Source of the DNA: an uncultured Bacteroidales bacterium
Lineage (GTDB): Bacteria > Bacteroidota > Bacteroidia > Bacteroidales > Bacteroidaceae
Assembly (NCBI GenBank): GCA_902801485.1
Contig: CADCIP010000006.1
Location: 27,662-91,661, forward strand
Reading direction: 5' to 3'
DNA: 64,000 nucleotides
Shown here: in pieces, positions 8,854-63,872 of the stretch
Layout of the letters: every line of letters starts with the position of its first letter
Position numbering within the stretch: the first letter of the stretch is position 1
The notes under the pieces: model-generated
What the model saw: the letters and a program-made list of their open reading frames with translations, nothing else
The model's database searches: none
What the model was told of the DNA's origin: nothing
Translations under genes and position numbers: made by a program

Positions 8854-8968
8854 AAAACCTTATGTGAGTCTCGCAAATGCTATTTTCAAAAAAAATTTTT
8901 TCAGTTGATTTTATTATATTTTCTTGCAGGTCTCATTTCAGAATGTTATATTATGTGCATGCGAGACT

Positions 8969-9010
8969 TCAGCCATCATCCCTCAGACATCAGCCCTCTT
9001 CCATCATACA
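8969..9010. repeat. Degenerate heptamer tandem array (6 units)
   Basis: Consecutive 7-base units TCAGCCA, TCATCCC, TCAGACA, TCAGCCC, TCTTCCA and TCATACA, all keeping TC at positions 1-2. Confidence 0.7.
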
Positions 9011-9099
9011 TCTTTAGGCTGTTTTTAGCGAAGCGAGGTTTTTTTTGACTTCGTCGAAAATACTTTCGCTCGGGAATAAAAAGAAAAGTAAACATTTCT

Positions 9100-10418: not shown

Positions 10419-10460
10419 TTCCTGAAAACATATTTATTATTATTGACTGAAGTTTCGGAA

Positions 10461-10535
10461 GTTAAAGGGGAAGTTAAAGGGGAAGTTAAAATGGGAGTTA
10501 AAAATGGGAGTTAAAAAGGGAGTTAAAAAGGACGA
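10461..10535. repeat. Tandem GTTAAA-containing repeats, 12-13 base period
   Basis: Six units of the type GTTAAAGGGGAA, GTTAAAATGGGA and GTTAAAAAGGGA follow each other between the HELGH gene and pepP. The unit drifts in length by one base, unlike the strict 7-base arrays elsewhere in the window. Confidence 0.7.
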
Positions 10536-27906: not shown

Positions 27907-28791
27907 ATGAAGGAACGTAAGTTGTACTATCGAGTAGGCGGACATTCTTTCTGTGTACTCTTCAAGGACGAGTGTAACGACGAATCACTGATACCGTCGT
28001 TCTCCCGTTTCAGGTTAGAAGAGCCTGCTTTACCGCTGCTTTATACGCTTACTGTTGACGACTCCTTTCGTTTTAACCCTAAAGGTCTGGAGGTTGGGCA
28101 GTTCGACTGCGGAGGCTGTAATCATGGCGTTTTTTGCACAGATAATACAGAATATCAGTATGAGATTTCTGATCTTCAGGGCAATCTATGCAGTTATATG
28201 CAGGCTTCTCCTAATTTCAAGGAATGCACCGTTGCTATACTGGGCAAAACATGGAACCAGCGTAATTACGGACTCAACAATGCACTGATGATGACTTACG
28301 CCTTTGCTGCTGCCGACCAATATACCATGCTGATGCATGCCTCTGTTATCCGTCACCAGGGCAAAGGTTACCTGATGACAGCTCCCAGCGGAACAGGCAA
28401 AAGCACCCATACAAGACTTTGGTACGATAATATCCCTGGTTGCGACCTGATGAACGACGACAATCCCGTTGTCAGAATCGAGAATGGTGAAGTTATTGTC
28501 TATGGAAGTCCTTGGAGTGGGAAAACACCCTGTTACAGGAATATCCAAGCTCCGGTTGGCGGAATTGTTCGTATTCAGCAGCGACCGGAAAATACCATTC
28601 GGAAACTCTCCACCATCGAAGCTTTCTGTAATTTGCTTCCCGCTATTAGCAATATGAAGTGGGACGAACGGGTTTACAAGGGTGTTTGCGACGGGATTTC
28701 CGAATTGATTCGTTTATGCGGAATGTATGAGTTGGGATGCCTTCCTGATGCTGCCGCAGCCCATCTCTGCCACGATACAATTGTAAAATGA
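27907..28791 (+). CDS. HPr kinase-like P-loop protein of a PqqD-linked cassette
   Basis: A 294-residue protein with an HprK/PEP-carboxykinase-like C-terminal half. The Walker A motif APSGTGKSTHTRLW is at residues 159-172, a LMNDDNPVV acidic motif near 190 is in the place of the second metal site, and GSPWSGKTP follows. The N-terminal half (residues 1-140) is a separate domain without a known signature. HPrK-like kinases occur beside PqqD-type proteins in lasso-peptide and other RiPP loci. ATG 27907 is chosen over the TTG just before it. The stop overlaps the next gene by 4 bases (ATGA). Confidence 0.78.
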   Translation: MKERKLYYRVGGHSFCVLFKDECNDESLIPSFSRFRLEEPALPLLYTLTVDDSFRFNPKGLEVGQFDCGGCNHGVFCTDNTEYQYEISDLQGNLCSYMQASPNFKECTVAILGKTWNQRNYGLNNALMMTYAFAAADQYTMLMHASVIRHQGKGYLMTAPSGTGKSTHTRLWYDNIPGCDLMNDDNPVVRIENGEVIVYGSPWSGKTPCYRNIQAPVGGIVRIQQRPENTIRKLSTIEAFCNLLPAISNMKWDERVYKGVCDGISELIRLCGMYELGCLPDAAAAHLCHDTIVK

Positions 28792-29324
28792 GTACGATAA
28801 AGGCCATCATACGTTTTCTGCTAAGAATATTGCTAACTCCATTCCGCTATTTCAATAAGCGAAAAAACGGTGTTGTGGTATCAGAGAAAAAGCACGAGTT
28901 TCCCAACGATGTATTCCTGGAACTTGTTTCCATGACACTTGCCGAGGGGCACACCGCTGTAATATGGGTCAAGGGATTCAGCATGCGTCCCTTCTTAGAA
29001 TTTGGCAGAGACAAGGTAAAACTGGCCTTTGCATCCTCATTTCATGTGGGTGATGCTGTATTGGCCGAGATTGCCAAAGGGCATTACGTGTTGCATCGAA
29101 TTATAAAAAAAGAGGGGGACAGGGTTACGCTTCAGGGCGATGGAAATGTAAGAGGTGTAGAACAATGCACAACGGCAGACATCAAAGGTGTGGTTACCGA
29201 ATACATACGTCCCAACAGGATTCTCTTTGCAGATGACGTATGTTTGAAGCAAAAAATCCGTCTTTGGCAAAAGTTGCGTCCCATCAGACGCTATCTGCTT
29301 TTCATCTACAAAGCGCTCATATAA
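28788..29324 (+). CDS. S24/S26 signal-peptidase-like serine protease
   Basis: A 178-residue protein with the S26 nucleophile motif KGFSMRPFL (Ser65, followed by Met66) and the ER/SipW-type second motif YVLHRI, where His103 stands in place of the bacterial Lys. VTLQGDGNVRG then matches the GDGN block of that branch. The N-terminus (IKAIIRFLLRILLTPFRYF) may lie on or in the membrane; the C-terminus is basic and hydrophobic. It overlaps the kinase gene by 4 bases. In this setting it may cut a leader or carrier peptide bound by PqqD; that is inference. Confidence 0.78.
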   Translation: MSTIKAIIRFLLRILLTPFRYFNKRKNGVVVSEKKHEFPNDVFLELVSMTLAEGHTAVIWVKGFSMRPFLEFGRDKVKLAFASSFHVGDAVLAEIAKGHYVLHRIIKKEGDRVTLQGDGNVRGVEQCTTADIKGVVTEYIRPNRILFADDVCLKQKIRLWQKLRPIRRYLLFIYKALI

Positions 29325-29325
29325 T

Positions 29326-29395
29326 CGTAAATGGTAAATCGTAAATAGTAAATCGTAAATAGTAAATCGTAAATAGTAAATCGTAAATAGTAAAT
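29326..29395. repeat. Heptamer tandem array (10 units) before the PqqD gene
   Basis: Alternating 7-base units CGTAAAT and AGTAAAT (second unit GGTAAAT) run for exactly 70 bases between the peptidase stop and the pqqD-like start. Copy number could easily vary between strains. Confidence 0.9.
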
Positions 29396-29402
29396 TACAA
29401 AT

Positions 29403-29672
29403 ATGAGAATTAACGAAGGGTTCGAACTCCGCAAGGTATGTGACGAGAATGTTATTGTAGCCTATGGTCGCAAGAATATCGATTTCAGTAAAGTCATCAG
29501 CATGAACGACTCAGCAGCATACATGTGGAATGCGGTTGTCGGCAAGGACTTCACTTATCAGGAGTTGGCAGATTTGCTCCGTAAGGAATATGATATTGAT
29601 GCCCAGACGGCACTGAATGACGCAAGTGAGATGGCAGAAAAGTGGAAAGGACTTGGACTGGTTTCCGACTGA
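29403..29672 (+). CDS. PqqD-family peptide-binding protein (RRE domain)
   Basis: An 89-residue single-domain protein with the PqqD/RRE pattern: N-terminal beta strands (GFELRKVCDENVIVAYGR), the conserved VISMNDSAAYMWNAVVGKDF turn-helix, and the helical LADLLRKEYDIDAQTALND with a hydrophobic C-terminal helix. Such proteins bind leader peptides and present them to modifying enzymes. No radical-SAM gene or obvious precursor peptide is nearby. The leader is the 70-base heptamer array. Its stop overlaps the next start (TGATG). Confidence 0.88.
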   Translation: MRINEGFELRKVCDENVIVAYGRKNIDFSKVISMNDSAAYMWNAVVGKDFTYQELADLLRKEYDIDAQTALNDASEMAEKWKGLGLVSD

Positions 29673-42302: not shown

Positions 42303-43073
42303 ATGAAGTTGTATGCCAAGGTAATTGCCATTTTAGCGTTGCCACTGATATTTGTGGTTGCTTATGCATTATGCCCTATTCAGATTCCTCCACCAGGATG
42401 GAAACTCAGCAAATTAGACTTAAAAGCCTCCCCCAACCCCTCCAAAGGAGAGGTGAGAGACTCTGTAGCATCTTGTACAATCACCCCTCCTTTGGAGGGG
42501 ATGGGGGAGGCTTTTCCTGACACAGCAGTCCAACGAATTCTATTCATAGGAGATTCGATGGCAGAAGGACTGGTGCGCAGAATGGCTGACTATGCACAGG
42601 AGAACGGGCACAACCTTTCACGTATCATTTGGTACAACTCCACCACCATATTATGGGCGTCCTCTGATACACTTCAGTATTTTATTCAGAAATACCAGCC
42701 CACCTATTTTATGGTCTGTATCGGAGGAAATGAGCAATTCCTGAAAGACCCCTCCGATAGAGAAGAATACATACACAAGATTATTGGTACTTTCGGGAAC
42801 ACACCATACATCTGGATTGGTGTTCCGTCATGGAAAGAAGACACGGGACTTAACAACCTGATACAGAAATGTGTGGGAGAAAACAGATATTTCGACAGCC
42901 GAAGACTTGCACTCAAGCGTGGCTCTGATCGCATCCATCCTACTTTTGGCGCCGCCAGTTTATGGATGGACAGTATTGCCGTATGGATGAAAGACAGATA
43001 CTCCATCCGGATGCAGAAGCCACGTAAGAAGGCTACACATAAGTACCCTCTGCATCTGCTGCAACCGGCGTGA
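42303..43073 (+). CDS. SGNH-hydrolase-like membrane-anchored protein
   Basis: A 256-residue protein with an N-terminal membrane anchor or signal (AKVIAILALPLIFVVAYALCP). The SGNH block I is ILFIGDSMAEGL near residue 79, block III is MVCIGGNEQF, and a late RIHPT carries the catalytic His. Residues about 41-71 are coded by an inverted pair of GC-rich palindromes (42422-42515) that reads through in frame. The next gene is an MBOAT acyltransferase, and such pairs (as in alginate AlgI/AlgJ) O-acylate exported polysaccharides. It follows the tmRNA by about 37 bases. Confidence 0.82.
   Translation: MKLYAKVIAILALPLIFVVAYALCPIQIPPPGWKLSKLDLKASPNPSKGEVRDSVASCTITPPLEGMGEAFPDTAVQRILFIGDSMAEGLVRRMADYAQENGHNLSRIIWYNSTTILWASSDTLQYFIQKYQPTYFMVCIGGNEQFLKDPSDREEYIHKIIGTFGNTPYIWIGVPSWKEDTGLNNLIQKCVGENRYFDSRRLALKRGSDRIHPTFGAASLWMDSIAVWMKDRYSIRMQKPRKKATHKYPLHLLQPA
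42422..42515. repeat. Inverted pair of GC-rich palindromes inside the SGNH gene
   Basis: Left arm 42422-42450 (AAAAGCCTCCCCCAACCCCT and on) and right arm 42487-42515 are 29 bases each and inverse to one another at 28 of 29 positions, with 36 bases between. Each arm also contains its own CCTCC/GGAGG palindrome. The insertion keeps the reading frame open. Confidence 0.85.
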
Positions 43074-43106
43074 TTAGTGGTTAGAGGTTAAAGGTTAGAG
43101 AATTAA
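43072..43106. repeat. Degenerate heptamer array before the MBOAT gene
   Basis: Units GATTAGT, GGTTAGA, GGTTAAA, GGTTAGA and GAATTAA, directly after the SGNH stop codon. A short GTTGAC repeat follows before the next ATG. Confidence 0.65.
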
Positions 43107-44549: not shown

Positions 44550-44584
44550 AATGAAAAGCGAAGAATAAGAGTTACCAACAGCAG

Positions 44585-44675
44585 ACGGTAAACGGTAAAC
44601 AGTAAACGGTAAACAGTAAACAGCAAACGGTAAACAGCAAACGGTAAACAGTAAACAGTAAACAGTAAACAGTAA
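44585..44675. repeat. Heptamer tandem array (13 units) before the AICAR formyltransferase gene
   Basis: Thirteen consecutive units, mostly ACGGTAA and ACAGTAA with two ACAGCAA, fill 91 bases and end 17 bases before the ATG at 44693. Confidence 0.9.
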
Positions 44676-44692
44676 ACTAAAAATATACAAGA

Positions 44693-45874: not shown

Positions 45875-45949
<75 letters not shown>

Positions 45950-46055
45950 ACGAAAGCGAAAGACGAAAACGGGAACGAAAACGAAAACAACCAACTTGTA
46001 AACTCATCAACTTGTCAACTTGTCAACTAAAAAATCAACTATCAACTAAAAAAGA
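45950..46055. repeat. Further low-complexity repeats (CGAAA-type, CAACTTGT-type)
   Basis: After the heptamers come A-rich CGAAAAC/CGAAAG units, then CAACTTGT-type units with 8-base period and TCAACTA units with 7-base period. There is no gene here. Confidence 0.6.
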
Positions 46056-46329: not shown

Positions 46330-48975
46330 ATGAAATTAAAAGCGTTTCTGTTTTTCACTATTCTGATGACCGTCTCTTCAGTATTCGCCCAAGAACTCAG
46401 TGTCATCACCTACAATGTCAGGTACAGCAATTCCGGCGACACAAACGCCGGTAACGGTTGGGCTACGAGAAAGACCTACCTCATTAACCTGGTAAACTTC
46501 CAAGAACCAGATTTGCTTGGTGTGCAGGAAGCCACGCAAGGTCAGGTTACCGATTTGGAAAACGGGCTGAAAGCCTATGGCCGTATTGGTGTAGGCCGTA
46601 ATGACGGAAAATCAAGCGGCGAACATTCCTGTATCTTTTACAAGAGAGAGAGAATGATGCTGTTGGAACATGGCGACTTCTGGTTGAGCGACACCCCCAA
46701 CACTCCCTCCAAGGGTTTCCCCAGCAAAGGCGGCTCCACCACATACTACCGCATCTGCTCGTGGGGAAAGTTCATCGACAAAGCTACAGGCTCGTACATC
46801 TATTACTTTAACACACACATGGATCTTGACGAGATTAACCGACAACAATCTTATTATCTGATTAAGAAAAAAATTCAGGAGGTTGCAGGAAGCCTGAATG
46901 CTCCTATAATTGTATCTGGCGACTATAATGCGGTTCAGACTGGAGATGCATACAAATTATTCTACAACTCAGGATTCCTATACGACTGTTATCACCGCGC
47001 CAAGCAGAAATTCATGACCAATGGAACCTGTCCTGGTTTCAATGCTGGCAGCTACAGTACAGTTTCCGGAGAGTTGCGTCGTATCGACCACATTTTTGTA
47101 ACAAAGAACTTCGATGTCAATCACTACGGTGTTCTGAACCCCTGTTACTATTCTACCTCGGGCACAGCAGACTACCACGAAAGAGCCTATTCGGACCATA
47201 GTCCCGTGGTGGCAAAACTCTACATAAAAATTCCAGAGATAGCTGATCTTGATACCATACAGCCACCCATGGAGAACGGTATCTACAAAATATCTTCAGC
47301 AAGAGAACTGAAGGCCTTCGCCAGCATTGTAAACGGCACATCAATTCATGACCAGAATTCGGCAGCAAAGGCTATATTGCTGAATGACATAAACATGGAA
47401 GAAATTACAAACTGGGAACCCATTGGCACAAATGGAAGTCCTTTCACCGGTATATTCAATGGTCAAGGCCATGCCATTAAGAATATTCTTCTTGATACAG
47501 GGAAAAGTTATTCGGGCCTGTTTGGTGCCACATCAGGTGCGACTATCAAGAATTTCGGTATCAGCGGTTCACTTATCGTTGCCGACGGAACAACAGAACA
47601 CGGTGTAGTGGGATATGCCTCCGGTTCTACCATCAGAGACATTCATTCGTCACTGAACATCACCATAGGAAAAGCTAACGATGACACAAAACACGTTGGA
47701 GGAATAGTAGGTTCGATGTTTAACGCTTCCGTTCTCACCCGATGCTCATACTGGGGTGCCATCACAGATGCCGGTACGAATACCGTTGGCGGTATCGTGG
47801 GGTACGCCGACCAGACTGCCAACAGTATCTCTTATTGCATCAACTATGGTACTGTTTATTCCGATGGTACCACAACCAATACAGGCGGTATTCTGGGATA
47901 TGTAAACCACGATGCCTTCAAGATGTCCTACTGCGCCAACGTAGGAAAGGTAAGCGGTAACAAAGAGTTCGCCGGACAACTTATAGGACGTCAGGTAAAG
48001 AAAATGACTACCCTGCCTACCTATATTTATTATATAGAAGAAGAACAGTTGGAGGGCTTCGGTACGGAATCAGATGAGACATCTGCCAAAAGTGCTTCCG
48101 CAATGACAAAGGATGATGTGGAACGCGGAGAACTGACGGCCATGCTTAACAAAGGAATGAGTACAGCCAACCTGATTTTCTTCCAAAACATCAACGACGG
48201 GGAACTGTCCGACCCCTATCCTGTCTTTGGTGGAACGCCAGAACATAAAGCCGTATATCAGGGTACATTCGGGAAAAAGAAGTCATCTGCAGACACCACA
48301 AACTATAACTTCTACGTCAACGAGGGCGGCCACCTACCCGACCTTACCCTTATAGATGCCTTCAACTCTTCTGTAGTCTTTATTGCCGATCATATCAGCT
48401 ACACCTTTAAGTCCATCAATCCGTGGGGAACCGTTTATCTGCCCTTTGCCGTAACATCTACAGAAGATATACAGTTCTACGAGGTTGCACCCAATCAGCC
48501 AAGTGCCGATGTCCTGACAATTGTTCCCTGTGCTACGCTTCAAGCTTACATGCCGGGATTGTACCATCAAACCGGAGATATATGCAAGGCAGAAGGCAAT
48601 GATGCACTCATTGACGTTCCACCGACCAATACAGGCATCACCTGCGGCAACTTTATTCTGACGGGAACCCTTAACAAGAAGACCAACTACAACGGAGGCT
48701 ACATTCTCAATGGCGATGTCTTCCAACACACCACCGAGAGCCTTGCGACCGAAGCGTTCCAGGCAGCCCTCACCACCAATGGTACGCCGGAGGAGATTAC
48801 AATCTTCATCAGCGATGCCGATGGCATAGACAAACCTACCCTCACCCCCTCCCGTAATGGAGGGGAGGTTTACGACCTCACTGGCAGAAAAATTAATTCT
48901 TCATTCTTCAATCTTCATTCTTTACTCAAAAACAAGGGTGTTTACATAGTGAACGGAAAGAAAGTGCTGTACTAA
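46330..48975 (+). CDS. Secreted endonuclease/exonuclease/phosphatase-domain protein with GLUG repeats and sorting tail
   Basis: An 881-residue exported protein (signal to residue 20). Residues 22-305 are an EEP domain with intact catalytic residues: VITYNVRY, Glu67 in GVQEAT, Asp198 in SGDYNA, RRIDHIF, and Asp289-His290 in YSDHSPV. Residues about 370-560 hold GLUG-type repeats (GLFGATSGATIKNFGISG, VGGIVGSMFNASVLTRCSYWG, TGGILGYVNHDAFKMSYCANVG). The C-terminus is a T9SS-type sorting tail (EVYDLTGRKI ... GVYIVNGKKVLY). A palindromic repeat (48839-48869) and a heptamer array (48896-48923) are inserted in frame in that tail. Confidence 0.87.
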   Translation: MKLKAFLFFTILMTVSSVFAQELSVITYNVRYSNSGDTNAGNGWATRKTYLINLVNFQEPDLLGVQEATQGQVTDLENGLKAYGRIGVGRNDGKSSGEHSCIFYKRERMMLLEHGDFWLSDTPNTPSKGFPSKGGSTTYYRICSWGKFIDKATGSYIYYFNTHMDLDEINRQQSYYLIKKKIQEVAGSLNAPIIVSGDYNAVQTGDAYKLFYNSGFLYDCYHRAKQKFMTNGTCPGFNAGSYSTVSGELRRIDHIFVTKNFDVNHYGVLNPCYYSTSGTADYHERAYSDHSPVVAKLYIKIPEIADLDTIQPPMENGIYKISSARELKAFASIVNGTSIHDQNSAAKAILLNDINMEEITNWEPIGTNGSPFTGIFNGQGHAIKNILLDTGKSYSGLFGATSGATIKNFGISGSLIVADGTTEHGVVGYASGSTIRDIHSSLNITIGKANDDTKHVGGIVGSMFNASVLTRCSYWGAITDAGTNTVGGIVGYADQTANSISYCINYGTVYSDGTTTNTGGILGYVNHDAFKMSYCANVGKVSGNKEFAGQLIGRQVKKMTTLPTYIYYIEEEQLEGFGTESDETSAKSASAMTKDDVERGELTAMLNKGMSTANLIFFQNINDGELSDPYPVFGGTPEHKAVYQGTFGKKKSSADTTNYNFYVNEGGHLPDLTLIDAFNSSVVFIADHISYTFKSINPWGTVYLPFAVTSTEDIQFYEVAPNQPSADVLTIVPCATLQAYMPGLYHQTGDICKAEGNDALIDVPPTNTGITCGNFILTGTLNKKTNYNGGYILNGDVFQHTTESLATEAFQAALTTNGTPEEITIFISDADGIDKPTLTPSRNGGEVYDLTGRKINSSFFNLHSLLKNKGVYIVNGKKVLY
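48839..48923. repeat. Palindrome and heptamer array inside the EEP protein's sorting tail
   Basis: CACCCCCTCCCGTAATGGAGGGGAGG (a GC-rich palindrome, described here as CCCCTCC/GGAGGGG around CGTAAT) precedes the VYDLTGRKI codons. ATTCTTC, ATTCTTC, AATCTTC and ATTCTTT (48896-48923) follow them and code for the loop SSFFNLHSL. Confidence 0.8.
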
Positions 48976-49003
48976 CTTCCAATTTTCAACTTTCAATTTT
49001 CAA
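48976..49003. repeat. Heptamer array before the second EEP gene
   Basis: CTTCCAA, TTTTCAA, CTTTCAA and TTTTCAA run from the stop of one gene to 3 bases before the ATG of the next, leaving no room for an ordinary Shine-Dalgarno site. Confidence 0.75.
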
Positions 49004-49006
49004 CTT

Positions 49007-52087: not shown

Positions 52088-54466
52088 ATGAATCAGAAAA
52101 TACTCCTCATTACATTGTCATTTGTAACATCAGTCTGTTCTTTCTCGCAACGTATGTGGTACGACACTCCTGCAGATGAATGGATGAAAGCCCTCCCTAT
52201 AGGAAACGGCAGATTGGGGGCTATGATTTATGGCGGCGTAACAACAGAAACCATTGCCCTAAACGAGAGTTCAATGTGGAGTGGCAGCGTGAATCCCAAC
52301 CAGAATATACCTTTTGGAAGGGAACGCCTGGATTCCCTGCGACAGATGTTCTTTGCCAATAAAATTGCAGAAGGAAACAGCATTGCCTGGAACAATCTGA
52401 TAGGCAACGAGCAGGACTTTGGCTCTCATGTTCCACTGGGTGACATCGAGTTAATGTTCCTTCATCCTTCGGGCACAACATATACCAATTACAGACGCGA
52501 ACTGGATTTGCAGAAGGCACAAGTAAGGGTGGACTATTCCATAAATAATATAAAGTACACGCGAGAGTATGTTTGTAGCCATCCACAGCAGGTAATGGCG
52601 GCACACTATACGGCAAGCCGGAAAAATGCCATCAGTTTTGACTTGGAAGCCAAGTTGCTGCGCCCTGAAGCTGACGTACGAACAGAGCAGAACACATTTG
52701 TCATTACAGGAAAGGCTTCCCAGTCAGGAAGAACAGACAAGGGCGTTCTTTTTGTTGTCCGACTGAAAGTAGTAGCAAAGGGTGGAAAAATAACAACTGG
52801 GGATAGCATTCTCTCCGTCCGCAATGCCAACGAGGTTACCATATATGCCGACATGCGAACCGACTACAAGAAACCTGATTACCTGAACGTCTGCAAGGAA
52901 ACGACAGAAAAGGCTTCGGAACGGACATTCGTCAGCATTCAGAATGAACATCAGTCAGATTATGCGTCTCTCTTCAAGAGGGTAAGCCTCACACTCGGCT
53001 CTAATCCAGAAACAAGCAGAGAGCCTACAGACAAACGTTGGATGGCGGTAAAACAAGGACGTGACGATGCCGACTTGCAAGCTTTATTCTTCCAGTACGG
53101 CCGTTATCTGACCATCATTTCCTCTAGGGAGGACTCACCTTTGCCTATTGCCTTACAGGGATTCTTTAATGACAATCTGGCCTGTAACATGGGGTGGAAC
53201 AACGACTATCATCTGGATATCAATACCCAGCAGAACTATTGGCTTACCAATGTGGGTAATTTGGCTGAATGCAACAAACCGCTCTTTACATACATTGCAT
53301 CACTTGCAGAAGCAGGTCGGAATACTGCCAGGACGGTGTATGGAGCACAAGGTTGGACTGCACACACGACAGCAAACATTTGGGGCTTCACGGCTCCCTG
53401 TAACTGCATAGCATGGGGACTGTTCCCGACGGCAGGAAGCTGGATGGCTACTCACTTATGGACACAATGGGAATACACCCGGGACCTGGATTTCCTCCGT
53501 CATACAGCCTACCCTCTCTTGAAGGGAAATGCCCGGTTCCTGCTAAGCTATATGTGCATAGATCCCAACACAGGATATCTTGTTACAGGCCCAAGCATCT
53601 CACCCGAGAACTCTTTCGGCTATGAGGGCCAAACCCACAGTGCCAGTATGATGCCGACAGTGGATTTGGTACTTGCACGTGAAGTATTTCAGGATTGTCT
53701 CAGGAGCACAGAACTTTTAAATACAGATGCTGCATTCGCAGATTCACTGCGTAAGGTATTAAGCCTGCTGCCCCCATTGCGCATAAATAAATACGGAGGA
53801 GTGCGTGAATGGTTAGAGGACTACGACGATGTGAACGTAAACCATAGGCACACCAGCCATCTTTTGGCACTCTATCCCTATTACCAGATTACTACACAGA
53901 ACACGCCCGAGCTGGCAAAGGCAGCCTACAATACCTTAGAACGCCGTCTTACAGCCCAGGGATGGGAAGATGTGGAGTGGAGCCGTGCATGGGCTATCTG
54001 CTATTTTGCCAGACTCCGTCACAGTCAGGAAGCCTATAACAGCATCAATCAACTCATAGGAAAACTTTCACGCGAAAACCTGTTTACCGTTTCTCCAAAG
54101 GGAATTGCTGGAGCTCCCTGGGATATCTTTGCCATAGACGGAAATATGGCTGGGGCTGCAGGTATGGCAGAAATGTTGGTCCAGTCACATGCCGGATACA
54201 TAGAATTCCTGCCCACCCTTCCAATAGCGTGGGACGAAGGGCAGTTCACGGGTCTTTGCGTTCGTGGAGGTGCTGAGGTTTCTGCCAAATGGGCTTCAGG
54301 GAAAGTGCTTAATGCCAGCCTGAAAGCCACCAGCAACGGCGAATTCAAAATTAAAATCCCAGACGGATTACAAATAATAAAGGTAAACGGGAAGAAGATG
54401 AAAGGTTACACGAACGATATTTTCCGTGTAACCTTACATAAGGGAGATGTAGTAACATTCAGTTAA
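52088..54466 (+). CDS. GH95 alpha-L-fucosidase/galactosidase
   Basis: A 792-residue exported glycosidase (signal to about residue 20) of GH95, which inverts alpha-1,2-fucosides or alpha-L-galactosides. Family motifs are MWYDTPADEWMKALPIGNG, GRLGAMIYGG, LNESSMWSG, NNDYHLDINTQQNYW (substrate-binding Asn residues), VTGPSISPENSFGYEG (general acid Glu), and the late WSRAWAICYFARL with the C-terminal domain. Its length is normal. It ends in TTAA, whose complement is the stop of the converging gene. Confidence 0.93.
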   Translation: MNQKILLITLSFVTSVCSFSQRMWYDTPADEWMKALPIGNGRLGAMIYGGVTTETIALNESSMWSGSVNPNQNIPFGRERLDSLRQMFFANKIAEGNSIAWNNLIGNEQDFGSHVPLGDIELMFLHPSGTTYTNYRRELDLQKAQVRVDYSINNIKYTREYVCSHPQQVMAAHYTASRKNAISFDLEAKLLRPEADVRTEQNTFVITGKASQSGRTDKGVLFVVRLKVVAKGGKITTGDSILSVRNANEVTIYADMRTDYKKPDYLNVCKETTEKASERTFVSIQNEHQSDYASLFKRVSLTLGSNPETSREPTDKRWMAVKQGRDDADLQALFFQYGRYLTIISSREDSPLPIALQGFFNDNLACNMGWNNDYHLDINTQQNYWLTNVGNLAECNKPLFTYIASLAEAGRNTARTVYGAQGWTAHTTANIWGFTAPCNCIAWGLFPTAGSWMATHLWTQWEYTRDLDFLRHTAYPLLKGNARFLLSYMCIDPNTGYLVTGPSISPENSFGYEGQTHSASMMPTVDLVLAREVFQDCLRSTELLNTDAAFADSLRKVLSLLPPLRINKYGGVREWLEDYDDVNVNHRHTSHLLALYPYYQITTQNTPELAKAAYNTLERRLTAQGWEDVEWSRAWAICYFARLRHSQEAYNSINQLIGKLSRENLFTVSPKGIAGAPWDIFAIDGNMAGAAGMAEMLVQSHAGYIEFLPTLPIAWDEGQFTGLCVRGGAEVSAKWASGKVLNASLKATSNGEFKIKIPDGLQIIKVNGKKMKGYTNDIFRVTLHKGDVVTFS

Positions 54467-57400
54467 GGTCTGACCACCTTTTTCCCGTTGATGATGTAGA
54501 TACCCCTTTTTGGTTGAGAGTTGAGAGTTGAGGGTTTAGGGTTAATTTTACGGCCTGTCAGGTCATAAACGGCATCAGCCGATTCTTCGTTCATCACTCT
54601 TAATTCTTCATTTAAAGAAGTTTCGGAATCAATGGCATGGTATTTCAGCACAAAGTCAGTGGCGCACCACCAACCCTCGCGATTGTCGCTGGTGGCAGTG
54701 GCGTTGCCGAAGGAGTGCCATTTGCCTTTGACGGCCCCCGTTTTGGAACCGACGAAGCCAACGGTAAGCGAGCCGCCAGCCTCCACATAGACAGGAGTGG
54801 TATTCAAGGTGTCCCAGACATCAGAAACGGGCAAATCGAAGAAATCCTTACTGAGTGAGGGCGAAACCACCTCTACCCCACTGCTACGGAGATAAGCGTG
54901 CTGGTCGGAAATACAGAAATGCTCCGTGGTAGCCTTGCACTCCAACTGGTAGTAACCTTCGGGCAGGTTGGTGAGTGTCTGGTTGATTTCCATCGTGGCA
55001 CCCTTGTCGGTGGTACTCCACCAGGCATTCCAACAGGTCTTGCCGAACTTGGTAGCTGTGCGCTGGTCGCCATCCTTATAGGTTCCCTGCTTCACCTGCC
55101 AGCCATCCGACTTCTCGTTGGCAAACGAAGGCGTCCTGGGTTGCTTGCCGGAGCGGGTGAAAGCGAGGTATTTGTCCATCAACTCCTGCAACTGGTTGAC
55201 AGATGTAATCACCTCCGCACAGGTCTGAGCCTCATCTGCCTTATCCAGGAGGGCCAGCATCTCATTATAGGATGGGCACGGTTTCTGCTCAACAGCCCTT
55301 AGAGTAGTTTGCAGGACTTTAGCCTGTTTCTTCTTATCTATAGCTTGTAAATGCTCGGCCAGTGCTGATTCTGCTTCATGTATATCCGTAACAGCAGACA
55401 TACGCTCCGTCAAATCATCATTCAGAACCGGATATTCCGTATTATATGCCTGCTGCGCTTCAGCTCTGAGACGTGCCTTCTCCACTCCATCAGCTATGGC
55501 AGCCTCACGGGTTGGAAAAAGCTGACGCAGTTGCACATCATCTATCTGCGCCTTAGCTGCTAACGAATAACAGGAAAGGATGCCATGAGTATATGTTTCG
55601 GTATTGAAAAGGAAGGTGTTTGCATGCCATTCGCTATTGTTGACTGCTTTTGCTACCTCTTTTCCCATACTCGTACCATTGGCTGAGAGATATAACCTGA
55701 TATAGTTACCGCCATTTTTTGCTGCTATGCGAAAGATATAATTTTGTCCTTCCAGCAATGTAACTGTCGTCTTGACAGAAGCGACATTGGCCGCTGTTCC
55801 ATTTAAATGAGACTGCAAATAAGCACCGCCATGAAAGCCGCCATCACCCACAACCTGGAACTGGGGCTCAGCCAAAGGTTTACCGTTTCCGTTAGTCCAA
55901 GTGGTGAAACCAAGGTCGAATCCGCCATTGGGGAATACATTACCACCGGCGTAATAGAGTTGACCGTCAATTTCAAAGGCATCGCCTAATTCCAACTCGT
56001 CATACGTATAGTATTCCTTTCCATTAAGGTCGATAAGGTGAATGCGATACAGAATACTTTCGTCATCGTTGTCAATATCGTAAGTATAAGTTGATGCCGT
56101 CTCTTTCTGTGCAATAGTGTCCAATACCACCCACATGCCTCGTTCATCCTTCATCTGCAACTCCATCAGCTGGTTATACTCTCCGTTGGAATCGTACCAC
56201 GAAAGACGTGTCTTGCCCGCCGAGAACACTTTCTGCGTGAACTTCGACGGACCATGTTGCGGAGGCGTAGTAGGTACAAAGTCATACTTGCCGTTATAGC
56301 CGACCCCAGATACAATGCCGGCATAGTACTTTCCCGCATCTGTCAGAGAACCGTTTTTATAAAGCTTAGAAGGGTCGCGCTCCTCGTTCCAATAATAATA
56401 ACGCTCTATGCAGTCGTTGTTGTTCAGCACAGGACAGATACGCTTCAGCGCCTCAGCATTCTGAGCTTCTGTGATACCGCTGGCAAAAGCTCCGTTTTTG
56501 TTCCATGAAGCACCCCATACCCATTCTGAAATCCATACGGGACGTCCCGTTGCATTGGTCCAGTTCTTGATTGTGCCGAAATTACTCTCGGGCCAGTAAC
56601 AGTGCAGGTCTATGATATCGCAACGCCAACCACGGGCATCGATACTGTCAATGAAGCGTTTTATATAACCCGTTCCGTTAGTATAATCGCTCCCATCCCA
56701 CGACGAGGGTGAGCAGAGGCGCATACCCGTAGCCATCAGGTCTTCCCAGTTGGCCAACACAGCATCCACATCTTCGGTCTTGCCCTTAGGATCATCTGCC
56801 GTATTCATAGGTTCGTTGTTGGTCTTCATGTGTGGTGATGTTGTACATAAACCCAGCGAAGAGGGCGAAGGATAGTTCTCGTAAATATGATGAGGAACGT
56901 TCTCCACATCCGGCGACATATCACTGGTTGTGCCCCACGTATAGGTACTGGTAACATTCAGTGCCGAACAGATGGTATTGTCACCGCCCCTTGCTGCCAA
57001 TTGCTGCTTGCCCGTATCATACCACTTGAAGATACGGTAAGAGGTAATCTTACGGTCGAGGACAGCAGGCAGGGTAGCTACCTCTAAATCTTTATTGGCA
57101 GCAATAAAACACCTGCTATAGCCACGACCTGCAGCGAGCGTAGAGAACGTAACCATATAGCCTCTCTTCAACCTGAAAGAGCGGATACGGTTGTTCAGTT
57201 TCTTGGCAGTCAGCGTATTCATATAGCCGTTCGAATTCTCTGTACCGAAATCGCTGCAACTCTCACCTTCGAAATGCTGCTCGTCGAAAACTGTTAACGG
57301 TTTGAAATTCCTGGCATAAGGCATGATGATGCAGCCGCGATTGTAAAGCTTCACCTGGCAATTGTTGTTATTGGAGGCCCTTACGCCATTAATCTGAATC

Positions 57401-57642
57401 TTACTAAGCCATTTGCTGATGGCAACGGACGGTTTAACCTGCGAAAGGATAATCACGGCATGGTCTGTATTCTCTATATTTACCAATCCTTCATCAGCAA
57501 AAGGGGTAGTACTCGTAATTTGATAGTCCACATCTTCTGTCAGAGTAACAGGTTCTGTAACTTTTGAAACAGTGGTTTTCTTATTAGCTGCCATCACGCA
57601 TAGCGGAAGGCAAAGCAAAAGTGATAAGATTATTTTTTTCAT
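54463..57642 (-). CDS. Large secreted glycosidase-like protein with Asl1/GH128-like core and sorting tail
   Basis: A 1059-residue exported protein (signal to about residue 18). Residues 1-200 are beta-rich. The catalytic-like core (about 230-470) has HIYENYPSPSSLGLC, IIDLHCYWPESNFG and GRPVWISEWVWGASWN, the pattern of the Asl1/GH128 glycosyl hydrolase core with Glu in ISEW as likely catalytic residue. After it come an Fn3-like segment, a jelly-roll-type domain (NVFPNGGFDLGFTTW), a helical region and another beta-sandwich. The T9SS-type tail is AVYDLTGRKI ... GIYIINGKKVVRP. Two heptamer arrays lie in and before the tail. The substrate is probably a beta-glucan, but that is uncertain. Confidence 0.75.
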   Translation of the reverse strand: MKKIILSLLLCLPLCVMAANKKTTVSKVTEPVTLTEDVDYQITSTTPFADEGLVNIENTDHAVIILSQVKPSVAISKWLSKIQINGVRASNNNNCQVKLYNRGCIIMPYARNFKPLTVFDEQHFEGESCSDFGTENSNGYMNTLTAKKLNNRIRSFRLKRGYMVTFSTLAAGRGYSRCFIAANKDLEVATLPAVLDRKITSYRIFKWYDTGKQQLAARGGDNTICSALNVTSTYTWGTTSDMSPDVENVPHHIYENYPSPSSLGLCTTSPHMKTNNEPMNTADDPKGKTEDVDAVLANWEDLMATGMRLCSPSSWDGSDYTNGTGYIKRFIDSIDARGWRCDIIDLHCYWPESNFGTIKNWTNATGRPVWISEWVWGASWNKNGAFASGITEAQNAEALKRICPVLNNNDCIERYYYWNEERDPSKLYKNGSLTDAGKYYAGIVSGVGYNGKYDFVPTTPPQHGPSKFTQKVFSAGKTRLSWYDSNGEYNQLMELQMKDERGMWVVLDTIAQKETASTYTYDIDNDDESILYRIHLIDLNGKEYYTYDELELGDAFEIDGQLYYAGGNVFPNGGFDLGFTTWTNGNGKPLAEPQFQVVGDGGFHGGAYLQSHLNGTAANVASVKTTVTLLEGQNYIFRIAAKNGGNYIRLYLSANGTSMGKEVAKAVNNSEWHANTFLFNTETYTHGILSCYSLAAKAQIDDVQLRQLFPTREAAIADGVEKARLRAEAQQAYNTEYPVLNDDLTERMSAVTDIHEAESALAEHLQAIDKKKQAKVLQTTLRAVEQKPCPSYNEMLALLDKADEAQTCAEVITSVNQLQELMDKYLAFTRSGKQPRTPSFANEKSDGWQVKQGTYKDGDQRTATKFGKTCWNAWWSTTDKGATMEINQTLTNLPEGYYQLECKATTEHFCISDQHAYLRSSGVEVVSPSLSKDFFDLPVSDVWDTLNTTPVYVEAGGSLTVGFVGSKTGAVKGKWHSFGNATATSDNREGWWCATDFVLKYHAIDSETSLNEELRVMNEESADAVYDLTGRKINPKPSTLNSQPKRGIYIINGKKVVRP
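54513..54609. repeat. Two heptamer arrays inside the 1059-residue protein's tail
   Basis: Plus-strand units GTTGAGA, GTTGAGA, GTTGAGG and GTTTAGG (54513-54540) code on the minus strand for the loop between DLTGRKI and GIYIINGKKV. ATTCTTC, GTTCATC, ACTCTTA and ATTCTTC (54582-54609) code for the segment before VYDLTGRKI. GTTGAGA is the unit at 45908; ATTCTTC is the unit at 48896. Confidence 0.8.
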
Positions 57643-60183: not shown

Positions 60184-60191
60184 CGAAAGAT

Positions 60192-60226
60192 AATCCATAA
60201 TTCATAATCCATAATTCATAATTTAT
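60192..60226. repeat. Heptamer tandem array (5 units) between divergent adk and DUF4831 genes
   Basis: AATCCAT, AATTCAT, AATCCAT, AATTCAT and AATTTAT without a break. Confidence 0.8.
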
Positions 60227-60280
60227 ATGCGAGAAGCAAAAAAATACCCTTACATCCGTTCCACATTCGTTGAAAAACAT

Positions 60281-63693: not shown

Positions 63694-63797
63694 GCCTACA
63701 TGCCTACATAAAAACGCTGGGAAATGCGATGGCTGTCGCGTTTTCATTACCTAAAAGCCTACATAAAGCCTACATAAAGCCTACATGATGCCTACAT
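63694..63797. repeat. Iteron-like GCCTACAT repeats flanking a hairpin
   Basis: GCCTACAT occurs at 63694, 63702, 63757, 63768, 63779 and 63790. The last four are spaced exactly 11 bases apart. AAAACGC (63711-63717) and GCGTTTT (63738-63744) form an inverted repeat between the two groups. Confidence 0.8.
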
Positions 63798-63872
63798 GCT
63801 TTTGGGTGTTTACAGGGTGGAAGCAATATTAGAGCAACGCATTTGCAAGTTTAATGCTTCTTACCAGAAAAG

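What the first reader, a model, noticed from the sequence alone, without database searches (positions are those of the whole stretch)
29326..29395. Dispersed heptamer tandem arrays: about ten arrays with exact 7-base period and locus-specific units
Seen directly: at 8969, 29326, 43072, 44585, 45908, 48896, 48976, 54513, 54582 and 60192 there are runs of 4-13 units of exactly 7 bases. Units differ by site (TCAGCCA, CGTAAAT/AGTAAAT, GGTTAGA, ACGGTAA/ACAGTAA, GTTGAGA, ATTCTTC, TTTTCAA/CTTTCAA, AATTCAT), so they are not copies of one mobile repeat, yet the period is constant. GTTGAGA and ATTCTTC each occur at two sites 6-9 kb apart. Most arrays stand in 5' leaders; three are in coding sequence. 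Heptanucleotide repeats (STRR) are known from heterocystous cyanobacteria; I do not know of a described equivalent in this phylum. A common machinery or polymerase habit producing 7-base duplications is an inference.
Basis: partly seen in the sequence, partly recalled or inferred. Interest (0 to 1): 0.85.

Follow-up and report, generated by a model that had tools for sequence, protein, structure and literature searches.

The report
Seven-base repeats in spacers and proteins
The genome of this relative of Prevotella carries very many short arrays of seven-base words, which differ between species and sit between genes and also inside ordinary enzymes; such seven-base repeats are known in bacteria, but their spread into protein loops and their species-specific words are unusual.

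Summary
The observation largely holds. TRF finds period-7 arrays at eight of the ten listed sites; seven pass a stricter scan, against none in 20 simulations. The excess is genome-wide: 107 of 183 arrays in a sample with 828 kb readable have period 7. "Locus-specific units" is half right: a few words recur in this genome far beyond chance (78 of 2556 pairs; random mean 3.8, maximum 17), while relatives mostly amplify other words. "Mostly 5' leaders" is not right: arrays lie mainly between co-directional genes, some touching a stop codon, seldom in divergent gaps. 33 of 107 lie in called genes, including variable loops of RsgA, CarA and GlnRS. Best reading: recurrent 7-base-step duplication plus spread of favoured words, kept where inserts are tolerated. 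Heptamer excess and a polymerase explanation are in print (passages). Species "dialects", colonised protein loops and a 30-34-base length mode were not found described in my limited searches. The copying mechanism is not shown.

The parts
29323..29395 (+). period-7 array, higher-order 14 (CGTAAAT/AGTAAAT), 10.4 units; overlaps the stop codon of ORF 28788-29324 and ends just before an ATG at 29403
   Evidence: gene ends
43070..43100 (+). weak period-7 array (GGTTAGA/GGTTAAA), about 4 units, starting at the stop codon of ORF 42303-43073, upstream of an MBOAT gene
44577..44677 (+). period-7 array (GTAAACA/GTAAACG), about 14 units, between the MBOAT gene and the AICAR formyltransferase gene
   Evidence: genes
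45907..45947 (+). perfect period-7 array (GTTGAGA), 5.9 units, 3' of the AICAR formyltransferase gene, followed by period-6 (GAAAAC) and period-8 (CAACTTGT) repeats
48896..48922 (+). period-7 array (ATTCTTC) in frame inside ORF 46330-48975, in the linker YDLTGRKI-...-KGVYIVNGKK close to the C terminus
48974..49006 (+). period 7/14 array (TTTTCAA/CTTTCAA) filling the gap between two ORFs and overlapping the first one's stop codon
   Evidence: (period 14 only)
54512..54543 (-). period-7 array (GTTGAGA on +, TCTCAAC on the coding strand) in frame in ORF 54463-57642, in the same type of C-terminal linker
60190..60227 (.). period-7 array (ATAATTC/ATAATCC) in the divergent gap between adenylate kinase and a DUF4831 gene
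   Evidence: genes
8964..9012 (.). degenerate heptads by eye (TCAGCCA-like); only period 14/21 scored

Best explanation
The arrays are heptanucleotide simple-sequence repeats made by a recurrent duplication or slippage process that works in steps of seven bases. In this genus a genome amplifies a few favoured heptamer words and seeds them at many unlinked places, mostly without carrying flanking DNA. Selection then decides where they persist: in spacers between genes, some right behind a stop codon, and in turns or linkers of proteins, where stop-free versions of the words survive. They are rare in divergent, promoter-bearing gaps. Shown: the 7-base step, recurrence of words, different words in different species, placement, and in-frame inserts absent at the same sites in relatives. 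Inferred: that slippage or template switching at the fork or in repair makes and copies them, and that selection causes the placement. Not shown: the enzyme, the rate, and why 30-34 bases is the commonest length.
For: Period 7 makes up 107 of 183 arrays, next period 6 with 16; 74 of 107 lie outside called genes, about 14% of the non-N sequence. Words: 78 of 2556 intergenic array pairs share a word; random mean 3.8, maximum 17 in 1000 draws. AACTCTC has 13 arrays against 5 in its 29 composition-matched alternatives; AAACTCT 12 against 3; AAACAGT 7 against 1. Dialects, 41 genomes: GTAAACA 121 matches in own, next best 13, none in 31 of 41, reversed word 0 in own and 11 in all; AATTATG 124 in G005, 15 in own, reversed 1 in all; GAAGAAT 70 in G020, 12 in own, reversed 4 in own. 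Placement: 2 of 64 divergent gaps hold an array against 47 of 330 others, p = 0.012; 20 of 72 intergenic arrays touch a stop codon. Coding filter: TCTCAAC 11 in CDS, 2 intergenic; TCTAAAC 1 and 11. RsgA: own PTLNSQLSTLNS where 17 of 21 aligned relatives have a short turn. CarA loops of 8 of 14 genomes carry repeats with scores of 9 or more, several with different words. L003, the closest named hit by identity, lacks arrays at five window sites. mutS is matched in 41 of 41 genomes, over the cut-off in 39, so its loss is not the cause.
Against: No polymorphic array was caught: the closest pair compared (G012/G024, 88.8 kb aligned) has few arrays, and its single 7-base indel lies in what looks like a longer-unit repeat; no paralogous copies in the own sample could be compared. 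Words are not wholly species-specific: pairs between own and other genomes share a word in 70 of 7980 cases and pairs among others in 37 of 2750, above the 0.14% of random heptamers, which a general sequence preference would also give. Three of six words tested do not stand out from their composition-matched alternatives (AAACCGT 4 against 5; AAAGTTG and AATTCTC 4 each against 10). Array length is not geometric but peaks at 30-34 bases (44 against 14 at 25-29 in own; 34 against 16 in relatives), which plain slippage does not predict. 13 flank alignments (11 pairs) were found over 107 arrays, against 0-2 pairs in five controls of 74 sites, so part of the spread may be by longer cassettes.
Confidence: 0.58

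Rival explanations
1. Pure local slippage: every array grew from a chance two-copy seed at its own site, and shared words only reflect sequence preference of the polymerase plus selection.
For: Known proposal for heptamers. 14-base higher-order units such as 29323-29395 show growth in multiples of 7. L003 has, by eye, short heptad-like runs at two window sites. G010 has about 1.7 units of a word of the own genome in the same CarA loop. Words are shared between genomes above chance.
Against: For the three commonest words the composition-matched alternatives are nearly empty, and reversed words are nearly absent; the dominant words differ between species of one genus; the short G-G turn of relatives' RsgA (protein level) does not resemble the insert.
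Confidence: 0.23
2. Mobile element: the arrays are the core of a small transposed element comparable to Rickettsia palindromic elements.
For: In-frame inserts in many enzymes, as described for RPEs (PMC10969869 passages); common length of 30-34 bases; many coding TCTCAAC arrays begin near AACTCT and end at CAACT (by eye); a few pairs share flanks; C-rich hairpin-like inserts sit in the same CarA loops.
Against: By eye no terminal inverted repeats or shared flanking ends in the 37 family members listed (not tested by a tool); flanks mostly unrelated; words of different sequence share the same length mode.
Confidence: 0.1
3. Regulatory sites: the arrays bind an RNA- or DNA-binding protein in 5' leaders and tune translation.
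For: Proposed for TAACTGA in Beggiatoaceae (PMC4679880 passages); some arrays end within 10 bases of a start codon.
Against: Arrays are rarer in divergent, promoter-bearing gaps (2 of 64), lie nearer the upstream stop in 31 of 55, 33 of 107 are in called CDS, dominant words differ by species and five sites are empty in L003.
Confidence: 0.06
4. Three-frame stop cassettes: a 7-base unit with a stop codon blocks all frames behind a gene.
For: 65 of 74 intergenic arrays have a stop codon in the unit on one strand or the other, against 57% of random heptamers; 20 of 72 touch a stop codon.
Against: No strand bias: of 40 arrays near a 3' end, 30 have a stop on the sense and 28 on the antisense strand; 8-, 10- and 11-base units would serve as well but are rare (10, 1 and 5 of 183).
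Confidence: 0.03
5. Telomerase-like synthesis: a reverse transcriptase copies a short RNA template into heptamer tracts that are then inserted.
For: Narrow length mode; genome-specific words; some words resemble telomere repeats (recalled).
Against: No match to the reverse transcriptase family PF00078 in the held genome, while 3 of 14 control genomes rang. The assembly is 85% complete.
Confidence: 0.02
6. Assembly artefact.
For: The window comes from an 85-contig assembly, 85% complete.
Against: Arrays occur in independent assemblies, among them named strains and a complete chromosome (L010, L016, L059, L063); coding arrays keep the frame.
Confidence: 0.01

Closest known systems
Long simple sequence repeats with heptanucleotide units (Mrazek et al. 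2007, not read; known here through passages of PMC4679880 and PMC4692102)
   Same: Unit of 7 as the dominant class, sporadic distribution
   Different: Here many words in one genus, amplified species by species; inserts in loops of enzymes; length mode of 30-34 bases (whether the 2007 paper treats these I could not check)
TAACTGA direct repeats of Beggiatoaceae, Cyanobacteria and five Bacteroidetes (PMC4679880, passages read)
   Same: Heptamer word dispersed in one genome, one-base variants seldom repeated
   Different: One word found across phyla, in the main genome mostly just upstream of start codons; here several words per genome, spread between stops and starts and in CDS
GGGAATC / GGGGATT heptamers of Xanthomonas and Nostoc (PMC4692102, passages read)
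   Same: Heptamer arrays between genes, with length and sequence variation between close relatives
   Different: G-rich, studied as G-quadruplexes; the words here are not G-rich
STRR heptanucleotides of heterocystous cyanobacteria (recalled; one search listing, texts not read)
   Same: Seven-base tandem units
   Different: Phylum and words
Rickettsia palindromic elements in protein-coding genes (PMC10969869, passages read)
   Same: Repeat DNA in frame inside many unrelated genes
   Different: RPEs are elements of about 150 bp with a conserved peptide; here about 32-bp tandem heptamers, mostly with unrelated flanks
Minisatellite within a MITE of Porphyromonas gingivalis (PMC4596501, seen only as a search listing)
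   Same: Tandem repeats dispersed in a member of the same order
   Different: Inside a transposable element, by its title and abstract start

Membership tests
Heptanucleotide long simple sequence repeats | Tandem unit of 7 in excess over chance | tested here: met
   7 in the window against 0 in 20 simulations; 107 of 183 arrays in the genome sample
Heptanucleotide long simple sequence repeats | Concentrated outside coding sequence | tested here: met
   74 of 107 in about 14% of the sequence, by my own gene calls
Heptanucleotide long simple sequence repeats | Copy number changes by slippage | tested here: inconclusive
   No informative polymorphism in G012/G024; arrays absent at five sites in L003
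TAACTGA-type dispersed heptamers | The word TAACTGA | tested here: inconclusive
   Not among the 33 words of the first 52 own arrays nor among the commonest words of all 107; the full list of 107 was not printed
TAACTGA-type dispersed heptamers | Most arrays within a few bases upstream of a start codon | tested here: not met
   Start distances spread widely; 24 of 55 nearer the start
Rickettsia palindromic elements | In-frame insertion in unrelated genes | tested here: met
   33 arrays in 30 of 573 called genes, with the doubtful cases told in Tried and rejected
Rickettsia palindromic elements | Element of about 150 bp with a conserved peptide | tested here: not met
   Tandem heptamers of about 32 bp, flanks mostly unrelated
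Reverse-transcriptase products | Reverse transcriptase gene in the genome | tested here: not met
   No PF00078 match in the held 85%-complete assembly

The most novel reading that the evidence does not exclude
A seven-base word can itself act as a minimal spreading repeat: an unknown copying process with a 7-base step writes tracts of about four and a half units (30-34 bases) of a genome's favoured words at new sites, without flanks or fixed ends, between genes and inside loops of essential enzymes, so that species of one genus carry different repeat dialects in the same protein loops.
Probability: 0.25. Interest if true: 0.85.

Novelty: new variant of a known kind. Interest (0 to 1): 0.62.

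Why it matters
Why seven is the favoured long repeat unit in bacteria has had a hypothesis but, in the passages read here, no test. In this genus the four words counted give 240 matches in one genome and none in 8 of 41, so the trait can be mapped against genes of replication and repair. The inserts in RsgA, CarA, GlnRS and other enzymes also suggest repeat DNA entering proteins as new loops, comparable to Rickettsia palindromic elements but with a very simple unit.

Tried and rejected
Local-only birth was weakened by word sharing. The stop-cassette idea failed for lack of strand bias. Leader regulation fits the placement poorly. Loss of mutS is not the cause. No reverse transcriptase of family PF00078 was found. 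A self-comparison of the own sample for recent duplicates gave no pair of 400 bases at 80% identity (with a BLAST warning about an all-N stretch). The pair G012/G024 was fetched to catch growing arrays, but the sampled parts have 3 and 4 arrays. A first gene caller missed known genes and was replaced. The random word-sharing figure of 5.8% was wrong because withheld N stretches were counted; one search corrects it to 0.14%. The reversed-pattern control for GTTGAGA is useless because the word reversed is a rotation of itself. One search failed on a naming error. My first attempts to read the C-terminal domains used a poor regex or ignored strand (corrected). The gene calls behind the CDS count are my own hexamer caller: three of the 33 arrays only overlap a gene's stop codon (L151, L242 at 2342, L250), one sits at a doubtful start (L249 at 10021), and three more are near an N terminus (L148, L239, L242 at 5705). 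In RsgA I aligned 22 of the 39 genomes with a match; in CarA 14 of the 38. In the CarA loop script the loop-4 pattern matched none of the six genomes without repeats, and G011 lacked loop 1 and the linker as well, so 'no repeats' there rests on the other loops and on the protein alignment by eye. The group called Clostridia holds one Paludibacteraceae locus (L068) among 15.

Full report
What is there. TRF confirms period-7 arrays at eight of the ten listed sites. Seven reach my stricter score, against none in 20 order-2 Markov simulations. The sites at 8969 and 54582 are, by eye, degenerate heptads. The window's genome is held as 3.6 Mb in 85 contigs, 85% complete. The relatives of a window protein that rank highest are Prevotellaceae/Bacteroidaceae records; the most identical is L003 (99% of amino acids; 84.5% of bases in that gene).

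Genome-wide. I read the window and 40 stretches of 20 kb of the same genome, of which 828 kb are not N. Of 183 arrays with period 1-24, 107 have period 7 and the next class, 6, has 16. Named Prevotella-group loci (45 of 139 arrays) and same-genus stretches (20 of 63) show the excess at lower density; same-order stretches have 3 of 12 and a mostly clostridial group of loci 2 of 6, in 252 and 245 kb. Within the genus the sampled density runs from 0 to 20 per 100 kb, on small samples for most genomes.

Words. In the first 464 kb of the own sample 52 arrays had 33 distinct words. Over the whole sample, 78 of 2556 intergenic pairs share a word; 72 random non-repeat heptamers share 3.8 pairs on average and at most 17 in 1000 draws. 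For three words composition does not explain it: AACTCTC has 13 arrays and its 29 composition-matched alternatives together 5; AAACTCT 12 against 3; AAACAGT 7 against 1. Three other words do not stand out: AAACCGT 4 against 5, AAAGTTG and AATTCTC 4 each against 10. Sharing between genomes is lower but also above chance: 70 of 7980 pairs between own and others, 37 of 2750 among others, against 0.14% for random heptamers. Four words were counted in 41 whole genomes of the genus. GTAAACA: 121 in own, 13 in the next, none in 31 of 41. AATTATG: 124 in G005, 114 in G049, 15 in own, none in 12. GAAGAAT: 70 in G020, 12 in own, none in 18. GTTGAGA: 124 in G018, 92 in own, none in 17. Reversed-word controls are near zero for AATTATG (1 in all) and low for GTAAACA (11 in all, 0 in own) and GAAGAAT (4 in own, at most 4 elsewhere); for GTTGAGA the control is meaningless. 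Counts are overlapping matches, not arrays.

Placement. 74 of 107 arrays lie outside called genes, in about 14% of the sequence. Arrays are found in 39 of 277 co-directional, 8 of 53 convergent and 2 of 64 divergent gaps (p = 0.012 for divergent against the rest). The window's array at 60190 lies in a divergent gap. 20 of 72 intergenic arrays reach to within 4 bases of the stop codon of the gene before them. In the window 29323, 43070 and 48974 do so.

Inside proteins. 33 arrays lie in 30 of 573 called genes; seven of the 33 are at gene ends or starts and are told apart in Tried and rejected. In 29 of 33 the coding strand is the pyrimidine-rich one, which reads as peptides such as NSQLSTLNSQL. 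Of 20 of these genes searched, 15 had an NCBIfam match at 1e-20, several of them below the curated cut-off. RsgA, GlnRS, CarA-CarB and an RND permease pass a cut-off; xylulokinase, GDP-L-fucose synthase, a PurF-like protein, a RecB-like helicase and a CCA tRNA nucleotidyltransferase do not. In RsgA the insert replaces a short turn before the DTPG motif. Of 21 relatives aligned, 17 have the short turn and four have other, non-heptad residues there; the best solved match, 1u0l, lacks the insert. In GDP-fucose synthase 27 extra residues that hold the array fall between adjacent residues of a solved homologue. The GlnRS and CarA inserts fall at or beside alignment gaps. In the xylulokinase alignment the insert is not a clean gap, and the PurF alignment starts inside the insert.

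Dialects in the same loop. CarA of 14 genomes was compared. Eight carry repeats of score 9 or more in the same few loops: TCTCAAC in own, TTCTTCAC-type heptads in G008, AATTATG and TTCAATG in G015, GAAGAAT-type in G016, TCAACTTG-type octamers in G018, G003 and G005, a 9-base repeat in G003, and short runs in G010, one of them of a word of the own genome. The other six score at most 7 in the loops examined; loop 4 was not matched in them. C-rich hairpin-like inserts occur in the same loops in G000, G015 and G016 (by eye). The loops vary in length between species, so they tolerate inserts.

The C-terminal linkers. Both confirmed window CDS arrays lie between a YDLxGRK block and a KGxYIxNGKK block at the C terminus. 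From recall I take this for a type IX secretion signal; family TIGR04183 was sought in the genome and did not list these two places. In the first 464 kb of own sequence a regex found six such ends, four with 12-13-residue linkers in heptad-like DNA and two with 4-5 residues; further ones with such linkers are.

Turnover. L003 lacks arrays at five window sites, with heptad-like runs at two of them by eye. TCTCAAC is 11 times in CDS and twice intergenic, TCTAAAC once and 11 times: two words one base apart, of which the second holds a stop codon.

Length. Arrays peak at 30-34 bases in own (44, against 14 at 25-29 and 11 at 35-39) and in relatives (34, 16, 7); the mode stays under four scorings. 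It is sharper in CDS (20 of 33) than between genes (24 of 74, with 22 at 40 or more). The comparison with the 25-29 class gives p = 5e-5 and 0.008, chosen after seeing the histogram. I cannot explain the mode.

Mechanism. A 7-base slippage or template-switch process with reseeding of favoured words fits best. Against it stand the missing polymorphism, the length mode, sharing of words between genomes and a few shared flanks. mutS is matched in rich and poor genomes alike, and no PF00078 reverse transcriptase was found in the held assembly.

Known. Heptamer excess and the polymerase-contact idea are in print, as read in passages of PMC4679880 and PMC4692102; TAACTGA arrays in five Bacteroidetes too. 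In-frame repeat insertion is known for Rickettsia palindromic elements (PMC10969869 passages). My searches for this phylum and for heptanucleotides, for T9SS linkers and for loop inserts in Bacteroidales listed no title or abstract start that describes species-specific heptamer words or loop inserts in this group; I did not read the other listed papers, and the library lacks most subscription journals and all bioRxiv preprints.

Noticed in passing
L236 (G000 CarA, loops 1 and 2), G015 and G016 CarA; window about 45876-45905 and 48839-48869: C-rich hairpin-like elements (CCCCTCCCC...GGGGAGGGG type, by eye) occur between genes and in frame inside proteins, in the same loops that hold heptamer arrays.
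   Followed up: partly
CarA-CarB linker of G003, G005, G018; window 45992-46028: Octamer words of the TCAACTTG/TCAACTCG type behave like the heptamers; of 37 period-8 arrays in own and relatives 21 are 30-39 bases long.
   Followed up: partly
G012, G024, G013 stretches: Period-22 arrays are the commonest class in G012 and G024 (11 and 7 arrays) and present in G013 (4).
   Followed up: no
window 10457-10531: Array of AGTTAAAAAGGG-type units of 12-13 bases in a spacer before an M24 peptidase gene.
   Followed up: no
window 63754-63798: Four copies of the 11-mer AAAGCCTACAT.
   Followed up: no
window about 9103 and elsewhere in the own sample: A non-periodic 16-mer, GTATTCCGCTCACTTA, recurs in six 200-base bins, in the window upstream of a gene; perhaps part of a dispersed promoter-bearing element.
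   Followed up: no
C23:7655 and C4:144764 of G000 (L223, L221): Repetitive stretches (NVNVNVN; NLNVNDNAND) precede the C-terminal block of putative secreted proteins.
   Followed up: no
G018 and G015 stretches: Genomes with GC of 0.57 and 0.53 in 40-kb samples carry AT-rich heptamer words, so word composition does not follow genome composition.
   Followed up: no
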